Shown piece after piece: positions 23,581 through 33,114 of a stretch of DNA of 64,000 nucleotides. The notes beneath the pieces were generated by a model. It did not search any database and had not been told where the DNA came from. It worked only from the letters and a program-made list of their open reading frames with translations. The position numbers and the translations under genes are program-made. This DNA comes from Aporhodopirellula rubra (GTDB taxonomy: Bacteria; Planctomycetota; Planctomycetia; Pirellulales; Pirellulaceae). The DNA lies in the NCBI RefSeq assembly GCF_014192335.1, contig NZ_JACHXU010000001.1:310001-374000 (forward strand), read 5' to 3'. Each line of letters begins with the position of its first letter. Positions within the stretch are counted from its first letter, which is position 1.

Positions 23581-24789
23581 TTGTCTCAACTTCCTCGTTC
23601 GCCATACCGGCCCCGCGGTTTTACCCTCGTCGAGTTACTCGTCGTCATTGCCATCATCGGCGTACTCGTCGGTCTGCTACTTCCTGCTGTGCAGGCTGCT
23701 CGTGAAGCGGCACGCCGGATGAGCTGCAGCAACAATTTCAAGCAAATCGGACTTGGTATTCACAATTACCATTCCGCATACAACAAGATGCCCAAACACG
23801 GCACAGGCCCCCAAGCTGTTCGAGCGATTGGCAGCAACTGGCCTCAGGAACGTGATTTTCAACATGAACGGTTGAGTGCTCAGGTTGGGCTTTTGCCTTT
23901 CGTGGAACAACAAGCTTTGTGGGAGCAAATCAGCAACCCCCTCATCGTCACCAGCGGTGGCACGACCGAAACTTACCCAGCTTGGGGGGCGGTTCCTTGG
24001 GGTGTTGTTGCCCAAACAAACAATTACTCCACTGACTGGACGCCGTGCTTTACCGATGTGAACACCTTTCGGTGCCCCAGTGACCCAGGGTTCGGCTTGC
24101 CGCTTGGTGGGCGAAGCAACTACGGCGTTTGTTATGGGGACGCGATCGATTACATGAGTTTTGGTCCCTACACGAACTGGGCCCGCAACGTTCGGGCAGA
24201 CGCTGAGTACAACGCGTCCGCTCGCGGCTGTTTTGGTATTTACACTCAAACCGCGTTCCGTGACGTTTTGGACGGATTGTCGAACACCATTTGCATGGGC
24301 GAGAACAACACGGACTTGGGTGACGAGCACATCACAACTTCGCCGCGTCACGGTGGCAATGTCGAAAACAATCCGACCAACTGCTCAGGTCAAATCGAGG
24401 TCAGTCGCCCCACGTTTTGGCGAACGAGTCCCCACAACAACAATTTCGTCGAGACAAAGCGTGGTTCCTGCTGGGCGGGCGTGACGATGGGCTGGACGAT
24501 GTGCAACACAATCCTTCCACCTAATCGGGAAGTTTGTAGTACCGGCCAAAACACCGCTGGAGGCGGTACTTGGACCGTCAGCAGTCGTCACCAAGGTGGT
24601 GCCCACGTCTTGATGGCCGATGGGGCAGTCAGGTTTATCACCGATTCGATCGAGGCAGGTGACAGCAAAGTGGGGCCTGTCTCATTTGGTCAATCAGGGG
24701 TTCGTGCTCCAGGATCGGCGAGCCCATACGGGCTTTGGGGATCGCTCGGAACCCGTGCTTCCAAAGAAGTGATCGACGAAGAGTTCTAA
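23581..24789 (+). CDS. DUF1559 prepilin-like protein (copy 1)
   Basis: 402 residues. I chose the TTG at 23581 because AGGAG stands 8 bases before it; the frame extends to an ATG at 23494 but that region has no protein character. The N-terminus is a type IV prepilin signal: short basic leader, cleavage after Gly13 before [22 protein letters not shown], then the DUF1559 hallmark [14 protein letters not shown]. The C-terminus has SRHQGGAHVLMADGAVRFITDSI and [19 protein letters not shown], shared with the other two copies here. The family is greatly expanded in planctomycetes; members are thought to be pseudopilins or surface fibres, with no settled function. A terminator and a small lipoprotein gene follow. 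Confidence 0.93.
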   Translation: MSQLPRSPYRPRGFTLVELLVVIAIIGVLVGLLLPAVQAAREAARRMSCSNNFKQIGLGIHNYHSAYNKMPKHGTGPQAVRAIGSNWPQERDFQHERLSAQVGLLPFVEQQALWEQISNPLIVTSGGTTETYPAWGAVPWGVVAQTNNYSTDWTPCFTDVNTFRCPSDPGFGLPLGGRSNYGVCYGDAIDYMSFGPYTNWARNVRADAEYNASARGCFGIYTQTAFRDVLDGLSNTICMGENNTDLGDEHITTSPRHGGNVENNPTNCSGQIEVSRPTFWRTSPHNNNFVETKRGSCWAGVTMGWTMCNTILPPNREVCSTGQNTAGGGTWTVSSRHQGGAHVLMADGAVRFITDSIEAGDSKVGPVSFGQSGVRAPGSASPYGLWGSLGTRASKEVIDEEF

Positions 24790-24812
24790 AGATCTCTTCG
24801 TGCTTCCCGCTC

Positions 24813-24840
24813 GCCGCACCGCTTTGCGGTGCGGCATTTT
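24813..24840 (+). terminator. Terminator after DUF1559 copy 1
   Basis: GCCGCACCG and CGGTGCGGC form a perfect 9-bp stem with loop CTTTG, followed by ATTTT, 23 bases after the stop codon. Confidence 0.85.
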
Positions 24841-25028
24841 CGAGCCTTCGTTCTAGAGCATTTCGATTTTTGGTTGTAGCCACCGTTGCCCGACGGTGGA
24901 CCAGGTTCGGGTGAACGTAGCTACGTTTGAAAACCTACGTCATCTACAAAAACGCTCTATTGGGCTTTCGTTCTGGTGGTTCGCGAAATAGATGCGAATC
25001 ACTTCGCCGCTACGTCTTTCATGAATTT

Positions 25029-25235
25029 ATGTTGTTGAGAAATCTAATGTTGCTCCGTTGTTTGATCTGTGTGTGCCTTTTTACTCCTTTTGTTGTGGGG
25101 TGTTCGGGCAACTCAGAGACTCGTGTGATCGATACATCCGAACGTCGTAGGTTGACTCCTGAAGAAAAACAAGCGCGGATGGGCGCGATGGACAACGAGG
25201 CGACTGATGTAGTTGCGCCCGACGAAACAGAATAA
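25029..25235 (+). CDS. Small lipoprotein accompanying DUF1559 copy 1
   Basis: 68 residues from the ATG at 25029; an ATG at 25047 gives a tighter lipoprotein signal (MLLRCLICVCLFTPFVVGC) and may be the true start. No strong ribosome-binding site precedes either. The lipobox is FVVGC, after which the mature part is about 40 charged residues (RRLTPEEKQARMGAMDNEA...DETE). I recognise no family. Two more tiny lipoprotein genes sit beside the other DUF1559 genes in this window, which suggests partnership, for instance as assembly factor or anchor. A terminator lies between this gene and the DUF1559 gene. Confidence 0.65.
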   Translation: MLLRNLMLLRCLICVCLFTPFVVGCSGNSETRVIDTSERRRLTPEEKQARMGAMDNEATDVVAPDETE

Positions 25236-25632
25236 CACCACGACAGGTACATTCGGTTTGCATGAGCTGCGTTTCTCGCTGTCGAGCGAACCCGTTTATT
25301 GAATTTCGCCGCATGGTTAACGCTGCGGCAGGCTGAGCTTTGCATTGAGTTGGACGCCTGTTCTGCAAAGTCGTTTTGTTCTCGTTGTCGGTGAGATCAA
25401 AATGTGGCCGAACGCTTCGGGATCTGCGGACTAGGCCTCCGGCCGCGGAGCATTCGGCCACATTCGTTCGGGCTACTGGAGTTAACCGTGGGTTTGAACG
25501 AGGCGAGGCTGAGGATGCAACCGGTCTGACGAGCAAGGCTGACGTTCCGAAAGCAAGTCGTTGGATTGACGTCTGTGCCATTCGAGCCTGCCTCTTTTTC
25601 GATCCGAGGCCAAGCCGACAGATGTATCCGGC
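25236..25632. other. Intergenic region with a long inverted repeat
   Basis: About 400 bases between a plus-strand lipoprotein gene and the 3' end of the minus-strand GH97 gene. I see no coding frame worth calling. It contains the inverted repeat at 25401-25464 and could act as a two-way transcription barrier. Confidence 0.4.
25401..25464. repeat. 12-bp perfect inverted repeat with an internal hairpin
   Basis: AATGTGGCCGAA at 25401-25412 pairs with TTCGGCCACATT at 25453-25464. The 40-base loop contains a smaller stem (CTCCG-GCCG-CGGAG). There is no T tract. It lies between converging genes. Confidence 0.6.
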
Positions 25633-27561
25633 TCACAGATCTCGTGGAGTCAGCACGATGGCTTGGCCTCCGTTGGATGCCATGTCGGCCGTCAAGATGG
25701 ACTTCGAGGTCACCTCTTTCCGCATGACGTCCACTTTCGTTTCAGCGGTGCCATCGGGGGCTTTGTCCGAACAGATTAACGCTTCGTAGGTGAGTCTTGG
25801 ATCGAGAAAGTCGAGTGGGATTTCCAATTGCCGACGTTCTCCCGCATTCATGCTGCCGACTAACCATCGATCATTCGGTGTTCCAGCGTCGGCTCGGCGA
25901 GCGATGGTAATGTAGCTGCCCATTTCGCCGTTGATGACTTTGGTGTCATCCCACGTCGTCGACAATTCTTTGAAGACCTCGAGTTCGGGTTCGCTTCGAT
26001 ACATTTCGGGCCTGTCGTACCAAAACAGATGCTGCAGCGGGCTGAAGTAAACGATCGAAGCGGCCAATTGATGAGCACGCGTCGTTTGAATTCGACCGTT
26101 GTAGTAGCAAACCGTGTAGTCACCAGGGCCGCAGAGAAAACGGATGAAGGGAAGCGTTACGTTGTGCTTCGCGGTCGGCATCTGTTCATTGCCGCCAATT
26201 CCTTCTTGCGTCAACAAGTTGGGGTACGTGCGGCTCCATCCGGTCGGCAGATAGTGGTCATGGATGTTGACCATGATTTCGTGGTCCGCACACTTCTTCA
26301 CGGATTCATGAACCCATTGGGTCCATTTTTGATCGCCAACTCGTACAAACCCAAACTTGATACCGGCAATTCCCCATTCCTTGAACAAGGGCAGCAGCGT
26401 ATCGAGTTGTGTTTCGAGATGGCGACGGTTGACGTACAGAATCACTCCCACGTTTCGCTCGCGACCGTAGGCAACGACCTCCTTCAAGTCCAAGGGACCG
26501 TCGTATCGCTTCGGGTCAACTGTCACGGTCGTTGCGTCTGACTCTTCTGAGAATTCGGAGCCATACCAACCCGCATCCAGCAAAATGTGTTGCATGTTCA
26601 GTTTGACAGCGACATCGATCGCGGCTTTGGAACCGCGTGTTGAAAGTGTCGAACGAAAGACTTTTCCTGGGCGGATCCAGGAAGGATCTTCAATCTCGCA
26701 AGGGTCGTTTAAGTTCAGCACGAGATCATTTTTCTCGATCAGCGAACTCGCAGAATCCGCCATTATCAGGTAACGCCACGGTGTCTTGTATGGTGCATTC
26801 GCAACGACCGAGCTCCCTAAGACCGGACGAATCGTGAGCTCATGTTCTGAATCTCGAGCAAGCTCCATTCGAGAAAAGTCGACCAGTCGAGCTTCGCCGA
26901 TCGCCAGTTGTGGTCCGTCTTCGACTTCCACCACCATCGGCCGTCCGCGAGTCCCTTCAAGCTCGGAAAGATGAATGTGATCGTACTCGCCTTCCACCTT
27001 TTGCGAGCTCCAGCACATGTGGTCAGCGGTGAAGCGAAACCGCGTGCTCTCGTCGGCGATTTCGAACGAATCCACGCCCTCTTGTTCGGGAATGATGTAG
27101 CAAAACGCAATCCCTGAATCATAGGCACGAAACTCAATGTCAAGTTGACGTGGCGATGAGTTATCTTGCTTTGATGTCGACGAAGACCTCTTCAAGTGAA
27201 CGGTCAAGGAATTGTATTCGTCCTTGATCGTGCTGCGTTCGCCTACCAGAGGTTTCCAGCTACTTCGTCGCGAGTCGCTCGATGAGCCTGAAAGTTGAAG
27301 TCCTTGGTCAAGCTGAACGCCGTCTTGGAACGTCAGTCCCAAAGCGGACGGGGCGGTGACCCGTTTGCCTCGGTAAAAAACGGAATACTGCGGTTCACCT
27401 TGTTCGGTGATTGAAAATTCCACGCTTGCCACACCGCCGGGCGAAACTGCGGTCAGTGGCGGCGCACTCGCGTCGGACGCGTTTGCCAAACCGTGCTGAA
27501 TCAGTAGCCCACACGCTAAGGAAAGAAGAGAAAGCCCGATTTGTCTTTGCTGTCGTAACAT
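25633..27561 (-). CDS. Glycoside hydrolase family 97 protein (SusB-like alpha-glucosidase)
   Basis: 642 residues from the ATG at 27561, chosen because it gives a normal signal peptide (about residues 1-28, ending LANA); 30 extra upstream residues are possible. The N-terminal beta-sandwich (to about residue 290) starts SPGGVASVEFSITEQGEPQYSV. The barrel follows with HILLDAGWYG, AGIKFGFVRVGDQKW and VNIHDHYLPTGWSRTYPN and LLTQEGIGGNEQ. A glycine where retaining GH97 enzymes have an aspartate nucleophile (IKFGF) points to the inverting, SusB-like group. It should hydrolyse alpha-glucosidic bonds outside the cytoplasm. It follows the FecR/LamG and sigma genes on the same strand, which suggests ECF-controlled expression. 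Confidence 0.9.
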   Translation of the reverse strand: MLRQQRQIGLSLLSLACGLLIQHGLANASDASAPPLTAVSPGGVASVEFSITEQGEPQYSVFYRGKRVTAPSALGLTFQDGVQLDQGLQLSGSSSDSRRSSWKPLVGERSTIKDEYNSLTVHLKRSSSTSKQDNSSPRQLDIEFRAYDSGIAFCYIIPEQEGVDSFEIADESTRFRFTADHMCWSSQKVEGEYDHIHLSELEGTRGRPMVVEVEDGPQLAIGEARLVDFSRMELARDSEHELTIRPVLGSSVVANAPYKTPWRYLIMADSASSLIEKNDLVLNLNDPCEIEDPSWIRPGKVFRSTLSTRGSKAAIDVAVKLNMQHILLDAGWYGSEFSEESDATTVTVDPKRYDGPLDLKEVVAYGRERNVGVILYVNRRHLETQLDTLLPLFKEWGIAGIKFGFVRVGDQKWTQWVHESVKKCADHEIMVNIHDHYLPTGWSRTYPNLLTQEGIGGNEQMPTAKHNVTLPFIRFLCGPGDYTVCYYNGRIQTTRAHQLAASIVYFSPLQHLFWYDRPEMYRSEPELEVFKELSTTWDDTKVINGEMGSYITIARRADAGTPNDRWLVGSMNAGERRQLEIPLDFLDPRLTYEALICSDKAPDGTAETKVDVMRKEVTSKSILTADMASNGGQAIVLTPRDL

Positions 27562-27738
27562 GGAAATAGTTGTTTCGAATAAAATGAAATTAGCCGCGTT
27601 GTCTAACGACACCGCATAAGAGGTTGGTGTTTGCGATGCCGATTCTTGCATCGGTATCTGGTTGAATCAGCGAGTGCATCGCTGCGAACCGAAATAAGCA
27701 CTGCGTCGGAGTTGGCAGAAACATCGTTGCCTACGGGG

Positions 27739-30300
27739 TCACTTCGCGGTCACGCGAAGTGTATCCATGGTGCCGGACTCGTTCGTATCTACAAATTCGA
27801 ATGACCAAACGTCCGAGTCGACGGTTGGTGCGAACTGAAGACCCTCATCGTTGAGGTCTCCTTTCCAGGTCATCACATCCCAAGATCCGGGCTGTGACTC
27901 ACCAAGGAATTCAACGTTCAATAGCGAGCCAGCGCAGAACGTGACATTCGCGCCGTCGCTGCCATCGCCATCAGCTTCATTGATTCGGATAGGAGTGATT
28001 CCCCCGTCGTCGATTCTCACGTCCAGCATAGAACCAGAACTTTGGTACCACTCACCGTCTTTGCTTCCAAACGATCCGATCGCAATCGCGTCCGCCTGGG
28101 AGCCAATCACTTGAAACACTCCTTGTCCTTCGCTTCGTCCGAGGATCACTCCCTGGCGAGTCGTTAATGTTCCATTGGATATGGAGAAGACACCTTCACC
28201 ATCGTTTTCACCAACGCTCAGGCTGTATCGCTTTTCCAGTGGCGCTCGTGAAAGCAAAAGTCGTCCGCCTTGCAGCAAGTAGTGACCTTCGGACCCGTCG
28301 TCCAGACCAATCTGCAATGTGTTGATTCGAACGTCACCATCACGGTGGATTAGTTTGCCTTCGCCGCCTGATGCCCCGACTCGTGACATGAAAGTGGGGT
28401 TGCGATCGACGTTCAGAACGCCTCCTTCGACGATCAAGTCACCAACTTGGCCGGAGAAGTTGCCTACGTGAATGGCACCGTAATTTGCTTTCGCGTAAGC
28501 CCTATATCTTGCTCGCTCATCTCCTGGGCGATTGATGTATAGGTCATCGCCCGGGTTGGGTGAGATTCCGCCCGACCAATTGTTTGCATCTTCCCAGTCA
28601 CCGTCACGTCCATTGTTGGTCCAATAGGAGCGCCCGAGGTTGTGAAACGCTTGGACTTCATGTGGGGCTAACTCGCGGTCAAAGAGCATGAATTCGTCGA
28701 TTCGACCGCACAGATTACTTGCCCGCGTGTCGGCTTCCATGACGGTTGGGCTGCCGTTGCCGATTTGCAAGTCGCTCAGATCCAACTCGCCTGTTGATGA
28801 ATCGATACTAGTCCTGTCCCACTGGGTGTCGACGCTCTTTCCGTCAACGAACTGTTGCAATTGCCCCTTACTGGAATTCCAGATAAAGGCGAGTTGGATC
28901 CATGTGCCCATTTGCTCGCCACGCAGGATTGGTGGCGTGGAAAATTCGAGTGGTAAAGATGTGTTTGAATCGCCATTTCGACGCCACACGAGCCGGGCTA
29001 AGCTTGAATTTTCGAGGTCAGTTTCGATAGACCAATGCAATCCACGAGGCAGCAAACTGCGTGACGTCAGAATCGGCGTCGTGCCTCCTTTGAGTGCATC
29101 CACTCGGATTTTGACCATGCAGGTCACTTTCTCGTGCTGTCCTTCGACGGACAATAGAATCCGATCGAACACGCTCTTGAAATCCAATGCATGCTTGCCT
29201 TTCCATCGCCCGTCCGTCCAATCACAACCGATGATCGTTCCGTGCGAGTTTTCGGTAGCGGCTTTAGCTCGGTTGGGAAGAATCAGTTCGTTAGCTTGCG
29301 TTGCTGGCTCGCGAACGAAATCGTAGTAGACCAGGCAGCTTGGGTCTTGCATGATTTCCGATCGACGATGGTGCCACAATCGGCGATAGACCTCATCGAA
29401 GCTATTCGCGATTGATTGGGTTCGTGACTTAGAATTCGTAAGGCGATCGGATACTTCAATGTCTCGATAGTTGCCTGGGCTCTCCACCTCGACTGACTCG
29501 CCTTTGCTGAGTCGTCTCGTGGTGGCGCTGACCAAACCACTCGCGCCGGCGTCCGACGGCGAAACTAAGTCCACCTCTCCTTCAATAACGTGGATTCGAG
29601 CGTCGTCATTGACATCGACCTGCATCGAAAAGGCGGTTCCCAAATCGACCACATCGACGGACTCTGTTCGAACGAGGAAACCTTGTGCAGGTGGGGGAAC
29701 ATTCACCGTGAGTTGGCCTTCTCGACAGCGGATTTCCATGTCGTCTACAAGGTCCAAATCGGCTGGCCCTTCGACAACAACGACCGCGCCGCGGTTGGTC
29801 TGAAATTCAATCAAACCACTTTTAAGAGTCAGGCGTCCTGCCCCGAGTGAGTCGCCGACTCGACGGGCCGTTCCGCGATCTCCCCATTGGGCATCGATGG
29901 AATTGCGTAAAAAGGCAACCCACGGTTTTCGGGGGCTGAGGTTTGGATCGTCCTCGCGTGAGTTATCTGAATTTTCGGAGGTGATGTTCGGATTGATTGC
30001 CTTGCCAGAGTCGCTGGACGCGGTTTTTCGTGTCGTTCCCATCTGCGACTGGTTAAGAGTGATCGCCCAATGAATGCCCACGGACAGCAACAGACACGCG
30101 GCGATCGCAGCAACCGTGAACAGCCACCGACGACCACGATTCCGAGATGCGTCCACCGCAGGTTCGGCCATTTGGTCGTCATCACTGCGGTTTGGAACGG
30201 GCTCGCTTCCCAATCGCTCTTGTTTATGTTGACGCAGCAATCCATGCAGCCTCGCTCGTTTCCAGAACTCAGCTCTCGCCTCTTCAGACGTCTGGATCAT
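27739..30300 (-). CDS. FecR-domain / LamG-like membrane protein (anti-sigma type), N-terminus frameshifted
   Basis: 853 residues from an internal ATG at 30300. Order: cytosolic helical segment, TM helix about 58-80 (LFTVAAIAACLLLSVGIHWA), FecR domain about 135-255 (VVVVEGPADLDLV...VVDLGTAFSM...HVIEGEVDLVSP), a LamG-like jelly-roll about 345-560 (FVDGKSVDTQWDR; GRIDEFMLFDRELAPHEV), then beta-helix-like repeats (WEDANNWSGGISPNPGDD). FecR proteins transmit a surface signal to an ECF sigma factor; the sigma gene is immediately upstream. The natural N-terminus is missing from this frame: the 28 residues encoded at 30301-30383 complete the usual sigma-contact helix but are in another frame (see the separate entry). 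LamG domains often bind carbohydrates, which fits the GH97 gene behind it. Confidence 0.85.
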   Translation of the reverse strand: MIQTSEEARAEFWKRARLHGLLRQHKQERLGSEPVPNRSDDDQMAEPAVDASRNRGRRWLFTVAAIAACLLLSVGIHWAITLNQSQMGTTRKTASSDSGKAINPNITSENSDNSREDDPNLSPRKPWVAFLRNSIDAQWGDRGTARRVGDSLGAGRLTLKSGLIEFQTNRGAVVVVEGPADLDLVDDMEIRCREGQLTVNVPPPAQGFLVRTESVDVVDLGTAFSMQVDVNDDARIHVIEGEVDLVSPSDAGASGLVSATTRRLSKGESVEVESPGNYRDIEVSDRLTNSKSRTQSIANSFDEVYRRLWHHRRSEIMQDPSCLVYYDFVREPATQANELILPNRAKAATENSHGTIIGCDWTDGRWKGKHALDFKSVFDRILLSVEGQHEKVTCMVKIRVDALKGGTTPILTSRSLLPRGLHWSIETDLENSSLARLVWRRNGDSNTSLPLEFSTPPILRGEQMGTWIQLAFIWNSSKGQLQQFVDGKSVDTQWDRTSIDSSTGELDLSDLQIGNGSPTVMEADTRASNLCGRIDEFMLFDRELAPHEVQAFHNLGRSYWTNNGRDGDWEDANNWSGGISPNPGDDLYINRPGDERARYRAYAKANYGAIHVGNFSGQVGDLIVEGGVLNVDRNPTFMSRVGASGGEGKLIHRDGDVRINTLQIGLDDGSEGHYLLQGGRLLLSRAPLEKRYSLSVGENDGEGVFSISNGTLTTRQGVILGRSEGQGVFQVIGSQADAIAIGSFGSKDGEWYQSSGSMLDVRIDDGGITPIRINEADGDGSDGANVTFCAGSLLNVEFLGESQPGSWDVMTWKGDLNDEGLQFAPTVDSDVWSFEFVDTNESGTMDTLRVTAK

Positions 30301-30383
30301 CTGGTCGAGTTCGAGATTGGTGGATTCAGTGAGTCCTTGATCGAAATAAAGATCAAGTAATTTTTGAGACGTTTGAGGTCCAT
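30301..30383 (-). other. Displaced start of the FecR gene: one-base frameshift in an A5 tract
   Basis: An ATG at 30383-30381 overlaps the sigma stop codon (TGATG) and has a good Shine-Dalgarno (AAAGGGGTGA). Its frame reads MDLKRLK and then, after an AAAAA run at 30365-30361, continues only to a stop at about 30299-30297. In the frame of the large FecR protein the same stretch reads LLDLYFDQGLTESTNLELDQ, the typical N-terminal helix of this family, but that frame has no start codon before a stop. One extra A (A6) would join both into a normal start. The stop of the short frame overlaps the internal ATG as ATGA, so reinitiation is possible too. Confidence 0.75.
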
Positions 30384-30934
30384 CAGGTTGTCACCCCTTT
30401 CGAGCGGAGACCTTCGTCAATGCACTTCGCCAACAGTGAACGTGCTCGCGAGAGAGCGACGTACACCGAGTCGACCGTCCATCCCATGACCGTTGCGATT
30501 TCGGCTGCAGGATGCTCGCGGGCGTAACGCAATTCGATTGCTTGCCGCGACTTCGGCGACAATCTTGTTAAACAGTCTTGCAACGCTTCCATGCGTTCTT
30601 CTTGCTGGTCGTCCAATAGATTTGGATCTGCGGCGAGGAGGGATTCGATTGAGGCGATGGAGAGCTGTTCAGTGGTTTTTCCGGAACGCCTACGATCCTC
30701 GAGCACCTTGTACCGAGCGATCTGGTACACCCAAGACATGAAGTCGGTCCCAAATTCAAATTGGTCGGATTTCACGGAAACGGTCAGGAACGTTTCCTGC
30801 AATATGTCATCGGCCCGCGCGAAGTCCGGTTGCATGCTGAGGATGATCCCTCGAATACGCGAAGAGTGCTTCAAAAATAACGCAGCGACTTCCGCTTCGT
30901 GGGTTCGCGTTCGGCTGATTGTTGGGTCCGTCAT
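30383..30934 (-). CDS. ECF sigma factor of the Rhodopirellula/Verrucomicrobium type
   Basis: 183 residues. Region 2: ALFLKHSSRIRGIILSMQ, DFARADDILQETFLTVSVK and FMSWVYQIARYKVLEDRRRS. Region 4: RLSPKSRQAIELRYAREHP and AAEIATVMGWTVDSVYVALSRARSLLAKCI. This matches the sigma subfamily that is paired with FecR/LamG genes in planctomycetes and verrucomicrobia. Its stop codon overlaps the start of the FecR gene (TGATG), so the two are translationally coupled. It probably drives its own operon and the GH97 gene, and perhaps the flanking DUF1559 genes. Confidence 0.92.
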   Translation of the reverse strand: MTDPTISRTRTHEAEVAALFLKHSSRIRGIILSMQPDFARADDILQETFLTVSVKSDQFEFGTDFMSWVYQIARYKVLEDRRRSGKTTEQLSIASIESLLAADPNLLDDQQEERMEALQDCLTRLSPKSRQAIELRYAREHPAAEIATVMGWTVDSVYVALSRARSLLAKCIDEGLRSKGVTT

Positions 30935-31371
30935 GAAGGCGCCAGGTGAAATGCGCTGAGGAATTGGACAAACACATCCGTAGTGTTATGCGGGTAGATA
31001 ATGAAACCTTAGCAGGTTGCCCCCTGTTTTTCGGGCGTCCTGTTTGCGATCGGCGACGGCGCGTTTGTCGGTCGTTTTGAAAAGCGATGTGGCGTATTGA
31101 TGGAGTGTCACTGTTGCCGAGGACGAGTTTGAGGAATGGGGGAAAATTCATCGCTAATTTCTGCTAAGAACGCGATCACGCACCGCATTTCTCTATACGC
31201 CAGTTGTTTTGCTCAGGATTTTCTTCGTCATTGCCCCGCAATCATTCGAGGAAGCATTGGAAATAACTGACCGGCTGATCACCGGTGAGACGAGCGTCCT
31301 GGCGTGAATTGGGATGTTGATACAGCAACATCAAACGCTCTTTTAATCCACCGTTTTTTGGAAAAATCACC
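30935..31371. other. Divergent promoter region between sigma factor and DUF1559 copy 2
   Basis: 437 bases between the minus-strand sigma gene and a plus-strand DUF1559 gene. It must hold promoters in both directions. A short dyad, ACCGG-N7-CCGGT, lies at 31270-31286 about 85 bases before the DUF1559 start. I see no coding frame to call. Confidence 0.4.
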
Positions 31372-32595
31372 ATGAATCAAAATCAGAGGAATCGGGGTTT
31401 CACCCTGGTCGAGTTACTTGTTGTGATCGCAATCATTGGGGTGTTGGTTGGGCTGCTGCTACCCGCCGTTCAGGCCGCTCGCGAGGCAGCACGACGGATG
31501 AGTTGCAGTAACAATTTCAAGCAAATTGGCTTGGCGATGCATAACTATCATTCCGCGTACGATCGCCTTCCGGTGGTTAACGGTGGTAGCCAGAGCGTCA
31601 CTGTGCCAGTGAACACTCGGAACAGTCCTGAGTACTATCGCGGAGTGACGGCCAACAACCGACTATTGCTGAACTGGCTCGTTCCGCTGACGCCTTTTTT
31701 CGAACAACAGGCCATTTGGGAACAAGTGTCGAATCCTTATCAGACACCCAACGGGATCGTTCCGAGCATGGGCCCCTCGCCCATTATGGATCTCGCCGCT
31801 CATGCCAGCGACGAGTATCCACCGTGGTTGACTGACATCCCGTCACTCCGTTGCCCGAGTGATCCAGGTGTTGGACTCCCTTCGCAAGGCCGCACGAACT
31901 ACGGATGGTGTGGTGGCGACAGTGTTCACCACGGCGATCTCGGTGCCATCACTGATTACGGGGATGATGTTAGCACCGGTGAGCGGCAAAACGCACGTGC
32001 GTCGCAGCGTGGCATGTTCATTCCGCGTCAACAAACTCGGTTCCGCGATGTGCTTGATGGGCTGTCCAACACGATCGCGGCCGGTGAGATTGTTACTGAT
32101 CTAGGCGATGGTGATAAACGCACCTCTTTCAACACTAGTATCGGAAACAATCGCGACGGAAGGTATTTCTCGCCTGCCGACCGGGCAAATCAGTGTGAAA
32201 GGTTGTACGTCGACGCGGAGCGTCCGCAGTTTTGGCAAACCGGAACGTTCGATACCAATGCCGAACGAAAACGTGGCTATCGTTGGGCAGTGGGATGCAT
32301 TGCCTACAGCGGCATGAACACGATCCTGCCTCCCAACCGCGGGCAGTGCATGGCGAGTGACAACTTTGGTTCGGGGGTTTGCCCTCCCGGTAGCCGTCAC
32401 CAGGGCGGATGCCATGTCTTGATGGGAGATGGAGCGATTCGGTTTGTCACCGATTCCATCGAAGCGGGGAATTCCGGTAGCAAGTTGGTAACCAATCGTG
32501 GTGACGGACTGCCTCCCGGATCGCAAAGCCCCTTTGGGCTCTGGGGAAGTCTCGGAACTCGGGCTTCGAAAGAAGTCATCGACTCCGAATTCTAG
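31372..32595 (+). CDS. DUF1559 prepilin-like protein (copy 2)
   Basis: 407 residues from an ATG preceded by GGAAAAA. The leader is only nine residues (MNQNQRNRG) before [22 protein letters not shown], then [22 protein letters not shown]. The C-terminal half carries [57 protein letters not shown] and the terminal [19 protein letters not shown]. It is closely alike to copy 1 at both ends and more divergent in the middle. It diverges from the ECF/FecR/GH97 operon. A small lipoprotein gene follows 354 bases downstream. Confidence 0.93.
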
Positions 32596-32606
32596 TTCCC
32601 CTCCCG

Positions 32607-32639
32607 ACCGCTCGCTCGGGCATTTCGCCTGAGCGGTTT
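32607..32639 (+). terminator. Probable terminator after DUF1559 copy 2
   Basis: ACCGCTC (from 32607) pairs with GAGCGGT (to 32637) across a 17-base loop and is followed by TT and a T-containing stretch, 12 bases after the stop codon. Weaker than the terminator after copy 1. Confidence 0.5.
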
Positions 32640-32697
32640 CGGTTGGTGGTTTGTCAACGTTTTAGTTTCGCATGTGACTAGGCGGATGGCGCAGTCT

Positions 32698-32719
32698 CGC
32701 TTCGCCGTAAGGCGAAGCG
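32698..32719. other. Perfect 9-bp hairpin with GTAA tetraloop
   Basis: CGCTTCGCC, GTAA and GGCGAAGCG form a perfect stem with a stable GNRA loop, about 230 bases before the small lipoprotein gene. No T tract follows. It may be an mRNA stability element or a dispersed repeat. Confidence 0.55.
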
Positions 32720-32949
32720 TGCGAAAGCGGCCTATTGGTCTTGTCATAACTCTCGTTTCCATCGCGTTATGAAAAGCCCGACTCGCAAGTGAGCGGATCG
32801 CGAAATCCGTTGCTGACGCGGCGGGCTAGCAAGGCGATAGCGTGAATGCCTTTCGGACGAGGTTCGCACGTTTTTACTCTTATTTACTCTGAGCCGATTG
32901 CCTGTAGGGCAAACGGCTCGCTTCTTTTGCTAATAGGAACACTCATATC

Positions 32950-33114
32950 ATGTTAAGTCGTTGTTGCTCCCTTCCTCTTTTGCTTACCCTTCTTTGCGTT
33001 GCCGCGTTTGCCGGTTGCGAAAAGAAGCCGCAAACCATCAAGGGCGACGAAGTCAATGACTACCTCGCCGATCATCCAGAGCTCATCGAAGCGTCTGAAA
33101 ATCGGGACTATTGA
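32950..33114 (+). CDS. Tiny lipoprotein accompanying DUF1559 copy 2
   Basis: 54 residues, ATG to TGA, easily missed because of its size. The signal MLSRCCSLPLLLTLLCVAAFAGC ends in lipobox FAGC. The mature part is 32 charged residues (EKKPQTIKGDEVNDYLADHPELIEASENRDY without gaps is the whole tail; key parts are the basic start EKKPQ and the acidic end DHPELIEASE). Codon use matches neighbouring genes. No family is recognised. Like the small lipoproteins at 25029 and 58626 it accompanies a DUF1559 gene, which is the main reason to believe it is real. Confidence 0.7.
   Translation: MLSRCCSLPLLLTLLCVAAFAGCEKKPQTIKGDEVNDYLADHPELIEASENRDY

What the first reader, a model, noticed from the sequence alone, without database searches (positions are those of the whole stretch)
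23581..33114. ECF sigma / FecR-LamG / GH97 operon bracketed by two DUF1559-lipoprotein pairs
Sigma, FecR-LamG and a secreted GH97 glucosidase run on the minus strand. On both sides plus-strand DUF1559 genes are each followed by a tiny lipoprotein gene. The set has a sensor with a possible glycan-binding fold, a regulator, an enzyme and two possible surface fibres with lipoproteins. This could be a carbohydrate capture-and-cleave system unlike the SusCD type: no SusC/SusD-like gene is present.
Basis: partly seen in the sequence, partly recalled or inferred. Interest (0 to 1): 0.72.

Follow-up and report, generated by a model that had tools for sequence, protein, structure and literature searches.

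The report
Sigma-factor switch drives a pilin-like protein
In this planctomycete a sigma factor held by a membrane sensor sits back to back with a gene for a pilin-like protein and its partner lipoprotein, and both sides carry the same private promoter, so the cell probably switches on this protein together with a sugar-cleaving enzyme; similar gene pairs recur many times in the genome.

Summary
The genes described are there, but only part of the block is a unit. The conserved unit is lipoprotein-B, DUF1559-B, sigma, FecR-LamG and GH97, kept in four genomes of two genera. The other DUF1559/lipoprotein pair (A) is present in two of the four.

The 437-bp region between sigma and DUF1559-B holds two back-to-back copies of CTGCTAAG-N17-CAT, one facing each gene. 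Both are kept in all four genomes, and sister modules carry variants. No copy precedes DUF1559-A or GH97. Control of DUF1559-B by this sigma is therefore likely, of DUF1559-A unsupported.

The pairing is common: 19 of 29 sigmas of this family here, and 9 of 15 in another genus, have a DUF1559 gene within 3 kb, against 1 of 34 and 3 of 22 other sigma hits; some relatives show little. DUF1559 genes are followed by a tiny lipoprotein gene in 41 of 71 cases, other long genes in 4 of 515.

Carbohydrate capture is possible but untested: the DUF1559 globular domain matches no solved fold, and GH97 has Gly at the retaining-nucleophile position.

The parts
30383..30934 (-). ECF sigma factor, family TIGR02989 (gvs1)
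   Evidence: 132 bits, cut-off 124.55; its stop overlaps the ATG that starts FecR in relatives
27739..30300 (-). FecR-LamG membrane anti-sigma/sensor (role inferred): N-terminal part, one predicted TM helix, FecR, ConA-like LamG, C-terminal beta-rich domain; annotated start lies downstream of a one-base shift
27742..28626 (-). C-terminal ~295-aa beta-rich domain of FecR-LamG, shared (44% identity) with the enzyme encoded downstream of the sister FecR in locus L049
25633..27651 (-). GH97 family protein with signal peptide (likely start at the internal Met near 27561, inferred); Gly at the retaining-nucleophile position
30988..31015 (-). candidate sigma promoter facing the sigma operon: CTGCTAAG-N17-CAT
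31161..31188 (+). candidate sigma promoter facing DUF1559-B: CTGCTAAG-N17-CAT
31372..32595 (+). DUF1559-B, prepilin-type protein with H-X9-DG; 93/90/70% identical in G008/G025/G012
32612..32636 (+). 10-pair hairpin between DUF1559-B and lipoprotein B (possible partial terminator)
   Evidence: consensus scan only; 19 such sites found in the region, 12.2 expected
32950..33114 (+). small lipoprotein B (54 aa; ...GDEVNDYLADHPELIEAS...)
23581..24789 (+). DUF1559-A (TTG start; 91% identical in G008; absent from the G025 and G012 blocks); no shared promoter motif: neighbour, not shown to belong
25047..25235 (+). small lipoprotein A (...VIDTSERRRLTPEEK...), partner of DUF1559-A

Best explanation
The block is a membrane-signalling module. 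FecR-LamG holds the ECF sigma factor at the inner membrane and senses something in the periplasm through its lectin-like LamG and beta-rich domains (inferred). When released, the sigma factor binds CTGCTAAG-N17-CAT and transcribes in both directions: leftwards its own operon (sigma, FecR-LamG, secreted GH97), rightwards the pilin-like DUF1559-B with its partner lipoprotein. The two-faced promoter rests on sequence comparison alone. DUF1559-B is then processed as a prepilin and works in the envelope with its lipoprotein, most likely in handling the same substrate that GH97 attacks (inferred). DUF1559-A and its lipoprotein are an independent neighbour of the same general kind.
For: Synteny of lipoB-DUF1559B-sigma-FecR-GH97 in four genomes, two genera. 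The motif on both faces in all four; 2 hits in the window with up to 1 mismatch, 0.21 expected, 1 of 100 shuffles with 2 or more. TAAG-Nx-CAT over 71 upstream regions: 12 hits at x=17, 0-3 at every other spacing from 8 to 29 and in the reversed control (8 of the 12 are the loci from which the motif was read). The poorly alignable G000 and G012 intergenic regions share four 8-mers (about what chance gives), three of them from the two motif copies. Sister modules with the same FecR type show variants, e.g. TTGTTAAG-N17-CAT, on both faces (L049, L079, L081, L100). Genome-wide: 12 of 29 family sigmas have a divergent DUF1559 within 1 kb, 0 of 34 other sigma hits (Fisher p 2e-5, binomial p 5e-16). 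Sigma and FecR diverge together (r 0.46, p 2e-4, n 16), and DUF1559 and lipoprotein do (r 0.29, p 2e-4, n 23).
Against: No expression data. Sigma and DUF1559 paralogues do not significantly diverge together (r 0.29, p 0.09, n 19) and FecR and DUF1559 not at all (r -0.05, p 0.72, n 16), so no protein contact between sensor and DUF1559 is indicated. A generic single-locus test for a word shared by the two faces does not single out this locus (score 14; null 14 or more in 86 of 800; 3 of 33 non-cognate comparisons equal it): the case rests on conservation between genomes. In the test, 41 pairs were scored; one reached 16 (L057, null 0 of 800), two 15 (null 4 of 800). Two good matrix hits (15.5 and 15.0) lie before DUF1559 genes of this genome with no such sigma within 4 kb (L046, L066), so the motif may be less private than stated or these are chance. 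Pairing is rare in some relatives (G002 0 of 10, G199 1 of 8). The FecR frame here carries a one-base shift near its start. The matrix was scored on the sites that built it.
Confidence: 0.7

Rival explanations
1. Full carbohydrate capture-and-cleave system: both DUF1559 proteins are fibres that bind a glycan, lipoproteins anchor them, GH97 cleaves, all four units under one sigma.
For: GH97 and a lectin-like sensor in the sigma operon. Gold-labelled dextran was seen on pili-like fibres of other planctomycetes (PMC5394234, passages read). No SusD in the genome.
Against: DUF1559-A is missing from two of four orthologous blocks and has no motif. The DUF1559 domain has no fold match. In sister and paralogous modules sulfatases, PSCyt/PSD1 proteins, DUF1501, PhoD and others lie near FecR, so glycan cleavage is not general.
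Confidence: 0.2
2. Chance neighbours: DUF1559 genes are so many (about 105) that some lie next to sigma operons; the repeated motif is a fortuitous inverted repeat.
For: DUF1559 is a very large paralogous family; some relatives show little or no pairing (G002 0 of 10); a generic single-locus word test does not single out this locus.
Against: 12 of 29 divergent neighbours within 1 kb, binomial p 5e-16; motif copies kept in orientation and 17-bp spacing in a genome whose flanks hardly align.
Confidence: 0.06
3. DUF1559-B is itself part of the signal path: the pilin-like protein, not a TonB receptor, feeds the state of the outside to FecR-LamG, as FecA does for FecR (FecA role recalled).
For: Position next to sigma/FecR in many modules; no TonB-dependent receptor among the block and seven neighbours scanned.
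Against: No co-divergence of FecR and DUF1559 (r -0.05), which a direct contact would predict.
Confidence: 0.12

Closest known systems
FecI/FecR/FecA cell-surface signalling and the SusC/SusD systems with ECF sigma/FecR control of Bacteroidetes (definitions recalled)
   Same: ECF sigma plus FecR-domain regulator, with genes for an envelope component and an enzyme next door
   Different: Sigma is TIGR02989; the FecR carries LamG and a C-terminal beta domain; no TonB receptor among scanned neighbours, no SusD in the genome; the envelope component is a pilin-like DUF1559 with a tiny lipoprotein, under a shared divergent promoter
Planctomycete ECF sigma/PSCyt-PSD1 gene sets (Rhodopirellula baltica; Studholme et al. 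as cited in PMC2754498, passages read)
   Same: sigma factor predicted to control a neighbouring planctomycete-specific protein
   Different: that passage links the sigma to a DUF1549/DUF1553 protein, not to DUF1559; no promoter in the passages read. The same paper treats DUF1559 as a solute-binding family: of 74 genes, 9 rose in the first hour of cold and salt shock and 16 fell in heat shock
Expanded DUF1559/SBP_bac_10 prepilin family (PMC8567305 section 18, PMC10632474; passages read)
   Same: N_methyl plus DUF1559; PMC8567305 says the genes are often flanked by genes with type I or II signal peptides
   Different: no sigma link, no defined lipoprotein family or co-divergence in the passages read

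Membership tests
TIGR02989 ECF sigma (gvs1) | whole-protein score over the curated cut-off | tested here: met
   132 vs 124.55 bits
DUF1559 prepilin-type protein (PF07596) | DUF1559 domain, prepilin N-terminus, H-X9-DG C-terminus | tested here: met
   both proteins
Type IV pilus/pseudopilus subunit | prepilin motif and long N-terminal helix | tested here: met
   (helix 12-63)
Type IV pilus/pseudopilus subunit | pilin-like globular fold | tested here: not met
   Foldseek best hit 1oqw E 2.0; none at E<=0.001
Type IV pilus/pseudopilus subunit | assembly into a fibre | not testable with these tools
   needs microscopy or purification
FecIR cell-surface signalling system | FecR-domain anti-sigma next to the ECF sigma | tested here: met
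   co-divergence
FecIR cell-surface signalling system | TonB-dependent receptor with N-terminal signalling domain in the locus | tested here: not met
   no such Pfam hit among the block and the seven neighbours scanned; the rest of the genome was not searched for one
SusC/SusD polysaccharide utilisation locus | SusD-like lipoprotein (PF07980) | tested here: not met
   0 matches in the genome; of 14 control genomes it rings in Bacteroides ihuae
SusC/SusD polysaccharide utilisation locus | SusC-like TonB receptor | not tested
GH97 | N-terminal, catalytic and C-terminal GH97 domains | tested here: met
GH97 retaining alpha-galactosidase subgroup | Asp nucleophile (KVDF in 3a24) | tested here: not met
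   KFGF in the window protein and its three orthologues
GH97 inverting alpha-glucosidase subgroup (SusB type) | the two acidic base residues (positions recalled: HHET and NAHE) | tested here: inconclusive
   first is YVNR here, second is HD

The most novel reading that the evidence does not exclude
Planctomycetes use a modular counterpart of FecIR/SusCD systems: each sigma/FecR-LamG pair has a private two-faced promoter that co-induces an enzyme cassette and a pilin-like DUF1559 protein with a matched lipoprotein, the pilin-lipoprotein pair standing in for the outer-membrane receptor. About two thirds of the TIGR02989 sigmas in this genome (19 of 29) would be such modules, which would give one of the largest planctomycete protein families a job.
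Probability: 0.3. Interest if true: 0.85.

Novelty: new variant of a known kind. Interest (0 to 1): 0.6.

Why it matters
DUF1559 proteins are the largest paralogue group of Planctopirus limnophila (68 members, function unknown, two of them essential; PMC10632474, passage read). A defined sigma factor with a candidate promoter in front of one of them, in a gene arrangement repeated across the genome, gives a direct handle: which signal turns each one on, and what it is made together with. It also offers a candidate answer to how cells without SusD-type systems handle polymers.

Tried and rejected
Rejected: DUF1559-A as part of the regulon (no motif, absent in two of four orthologous blocks). 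Rejected: fold evidence for glycan binding by DUF1559 (galectin rows are insignificant, E 2.8 or worse, TM about 0.05). Rejected: sigma/DUF1559 co-divergence across paralogues (p 0.09). Led nowhere: a general promoter motif for all TIGR02989 sigmas (the gapped-word counts show clearly only the subgroup's own motif); single-locus tests of private promoter pairs are too weak, this locus included. The toxin and sialidase rows reflect the common ConA-like jelly-roll fold and are not read as function.

Searches fetched loci for all 29 family sigmas, but not every DUF1559 gene of the genome: one search examined 71 DUF1559 genes from 8 genomes, 50 of them from this genome's roughly 105. For one search, 39 DUF1559/lipoprotein pairs were kept after removing ORFs that looked spurious or lay over 400 bases away. 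DUF1559 rows for G002, G018 and G025 were cut at E 1e-15; sigma rows at 1e-28, in G025 at 1e-8. One search also listed family sigmas of G023, G031, G041 and G042 (6, 16, 9 and 29); I did not examine their neighbours.
Full report
What is there. The window lies in an 8.55-Mb planctomycete draft genome of 75 contigs. On the minus strand run an ECF sigma factor of family TIGR02989 (30383-30934), a FecR-LamG protein (27739-30300) and a GH97 protein with a signal peptide (25633-27651). On the plus strand lie DUF1559-A (23581-24789) with a small lipoprotein (25047-25235), and DUF1559-B (31372-32595) with a small lipoprotein (32950-33114). Of seven neighbours scanned, hits include a Ser/Thr kinase, a uracil phosphoribosyltransferase, a metallophosphoesterase and an EamA transporter.

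Which part is a unit. The FecR type found here, with a long C-terminal beta-rich domain, was found at E<=1e-100 in 9 of 241 genomes of the family. The closest loci are in G008 (Aporhodopirellula aestuarii by the contigs), G025 (another genus) and G012 (Rhodopirellula sallentina). All three have lipoprotein-DUF1559-B divergent from sigma-FecR-GH97. In G008, G025 and G012, DUF1559-B is 93, 90 and 70% identical, GH97 83, 81 and 55%, FecR 77, 75 and 45%. The A pair is present only in G008 (DUF1559-A 91% identical); in G025 and G012 other genes follow GH97. So the conserved unit is the B side.

The shared promoter. Between sigma and DUF1559-B are two copies of CTGCTAAG-N17-CAT, one on each strand, each facing its gene (31015-30988 minus, 31161-31188 plus). 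With up to one mismatch there are no others in the window (2 found, 0.21 expected, 1 of 100 shuffles with 2 or more). A slightly shorter form has 6 exact matches in the whole genome and its reversed control 14, so the other four are at the chance level. Both copies are present in G008, G025 and G012. The G000 and G012 intergenic regions (437 and 597 bases) share four 8-mers, about what chance gives, but three of the four belong to the two motif copies, in the right places and orientations; G000 and the more distant G199 share no such motif word. Over 71 regions upstream of sigma or DUF1559 genes, TAAG-Nx-CAT occurs 12 times at x=17 and 0-3 times at every other spacing from 8 to 29; the reversed control gives 0-3. 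Eight of the 12 are the four orthologous loci from which the motif was first read; the other four are in the sister subgroup.

A matrix scan extends this (it includes the training sites). At a score of 10 or more: sigma-upstream regions 11 of 76 (reversed control 3), DUF1559 near a sigma 10 of 40 (control 2), other DUF1559 4 of 33 (control 1). Of the 12 loci of this FecR type with an upstream region, 10 have a sigma-facing site (L049, L062, L075, L076, L077, L079, L081, L097, L099, L100), with base changes such as TTGTTAAG or TTGTTCAG; L078 is not among the 45 best listed, and in L080 sigma follows DUF1559 and its lipoprotein on the same strand. Of 11 DUF1559 genes within 3 kb of these sigmas, 9 score 11.6 or more, L080 scores 9.6 (its control 8.8), and the second gene of L049 is not listed. 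DUF1559-A is not listed for either genome. Against a strictly private motif, two DUF1559 genes of this genome with no such sigma within 4 kb score 15.5 and 15.0 (L046 at 3034, L066 at 12023). A generic word-sharing test on single loci does not single out this locus, so the case rests on conservation between genomes.

How general it is. In the genome 12 of 29 TIGR02989 sigmas (over 100 bits) have a DUF1559 divergently upstream within 1 kb and 19 of 29 have one within 3 kb in any arrangement; of 34 weaker sigma hits none has one within 2 kb and one within 3 kb. Binomial p 5e-16 and 2e-13; Fisher p 2e-5 for the divergent class. In G025 it is 9 of 15 against 3 of 22. Elsewhere it is less: G191 5 of 17, G018 3 of 8, G190 2 of 7, G199 1 of 8, G002 0 of 10. 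The pairing is thus an expansion of some lineages. Twenty proteins near FecR genes, not all in the same operon, include sulfatases, DUF1501, PSCyt1/PSCyt2/PSD1, PSD2-5, PhoD, an FAD oxidoreductase with GDSL lipase, and others; two had no hit.

The lipoprotein. With a strict lipobox test, 41 of 71 DUF1559 genes from eight genomes have a small lipoprotein ORF within 700 bases downstream on the same strand and 10 more have one upstream; the opposite strand gives 6 of 71, and 4 of 515 other long genes have one. By eye at least one of the 41 (L058) rests on a spurious ORF, and L045 and L118 show ORFs shared by two DUF1559 genes. Divergence of DUF1559 and its lipoprotein is correlated (r 0.29, p 2e-4, 23 pairs of this genome; r 0.73 for 39 pairs of all genomes, which includes orthologues). 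PMC8567305 (passages read) already notes that such genes are often flanked by genes with type I or II signal peptides.

Proteins. AlphaFold2 gives DUF1559-B a confident model (pLDDT 89) with a pilin-like helix 12-63 and a globular part without a significant PDB match; profile search finds only pilin and pseudopilin N-termini. FecR-LamG (pLDDT 76) matches ConA-like jelly-roll domains of many proteins, glycan-binding and other. Its C-terminal 295 aa have no NCBIfam or PDB sequence match and recur, 44% identical, at the C-terminus of the enzyme encoded downstream of the sister FecR. GH97 aligns without gaps over 122 aa to the retaining alpha-galactosidase 3a24, but has Gly where 3a24 has the Asp of KVDF; the three orthologues and four of five paralogues of this genome share the Gly, one paralogue has Asp. 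Substrate and mechanism cannot be named.

What works against the reading. Sigma and DUF1559 paralogues do not significantly diverge together (p 0.09) and FecR and DUF1559 not at all (p 0.72), whereas sigma and FecR do (p 2e-4). For other modules a private shared promoter is visible from one genome only at L057 (TTGTCCCGA-N16-CCTTGGC on both faces, null 0 of 800) and weakly at L044 and L117 (15; null 4 of 800), of 41 pairs scored. The FecR start in this genome is shifted by one base relative to relatives, which may be an assembly error or a real defect of the anti-sigma N-terminus.

Literature. Four papers of the held library mention DUF1559; three of them were searched for the word (PMC4807772 was not opened), and a fifth, which uses the name SBP_bac_10, was found and searched. 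In the passages read none links DUF1559 to a sigma factor or promoter. The listings of searches show no such title; the ECF classification papers were not opened. Boedeker et al. (PMC5394234, passages) report gold-labelled dextran on pili-like fibres and only speculate on uptake; PMC11131199 (passages) says such mechanisms were shown only for some species. Absence from this open-access library is not proof of absence.

Verdict. The block is real and better explained as one instance of a recurrent sigma/FecR-LamG module that drives a pilin-like DUF1559 protein from a two-faced promoter. Carbohydrate capture is a fair but untested idea; the A side does not belong on present evidence. On checking I lowered confidence from 0.72 to 0.70 and interest from 0.62 to 0.60 because of the two matrix hits elsewhere and the single-locus test.

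Noticed in passing
window 30301-30382 (minus strand): FecR start: relatives begin about 34 aa earlier; here the ATG overlapping the sigma stop is out of frame with the rest by one base, at a run of A. Sequencing error or real defect of the anti-sigma N-terminus.
   Followed up: partly
window 25633-27651: GH97 with Gly at the retaining-nucleophile position and HD where SusB-type enzymes have HE; same in its three orthologues.
   Followed up: partly
window 27742-28626; L049:3634-6666; L082; L083: The anti-sigma sensor and the FAD/GDSL enzyme of sister operons share a C-terminal ~295-aa beta-rich domain (44% identity) with no match in NCBIfam or PDB sequences.
   Followed up: partly
41 of 71 DUF1559 genes, 8 genomes: A set of 45-75-aa lipoproteins (types GDEIxxYLxEHPE and VIDTSxRxRLTPEE) accompanies DUF1559 genes; the two of the window have no Pfam hit.
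   Followed up: partly
L057 (G000:C5, sigma at 344774): Another two-faced pair with a different sequence: TTGTCCCGA-N16-CCTTGGC upstream of both sigma and DUF1559, 16 of 16 matched positions.
   Followed up: no
L046 at 3034 and L066 at 12023 (G000): Good matches to the promoter matrix (15.5 and 15.0) before DUF1559 genes with no family sigma within 4 kb: further regulon members or chance.
   Followed up: no
window 32612-32636: 10-pair hairpin between DUF1559-B and its lipoprotein, possibly setting their relative amounts.
   Followed up: no
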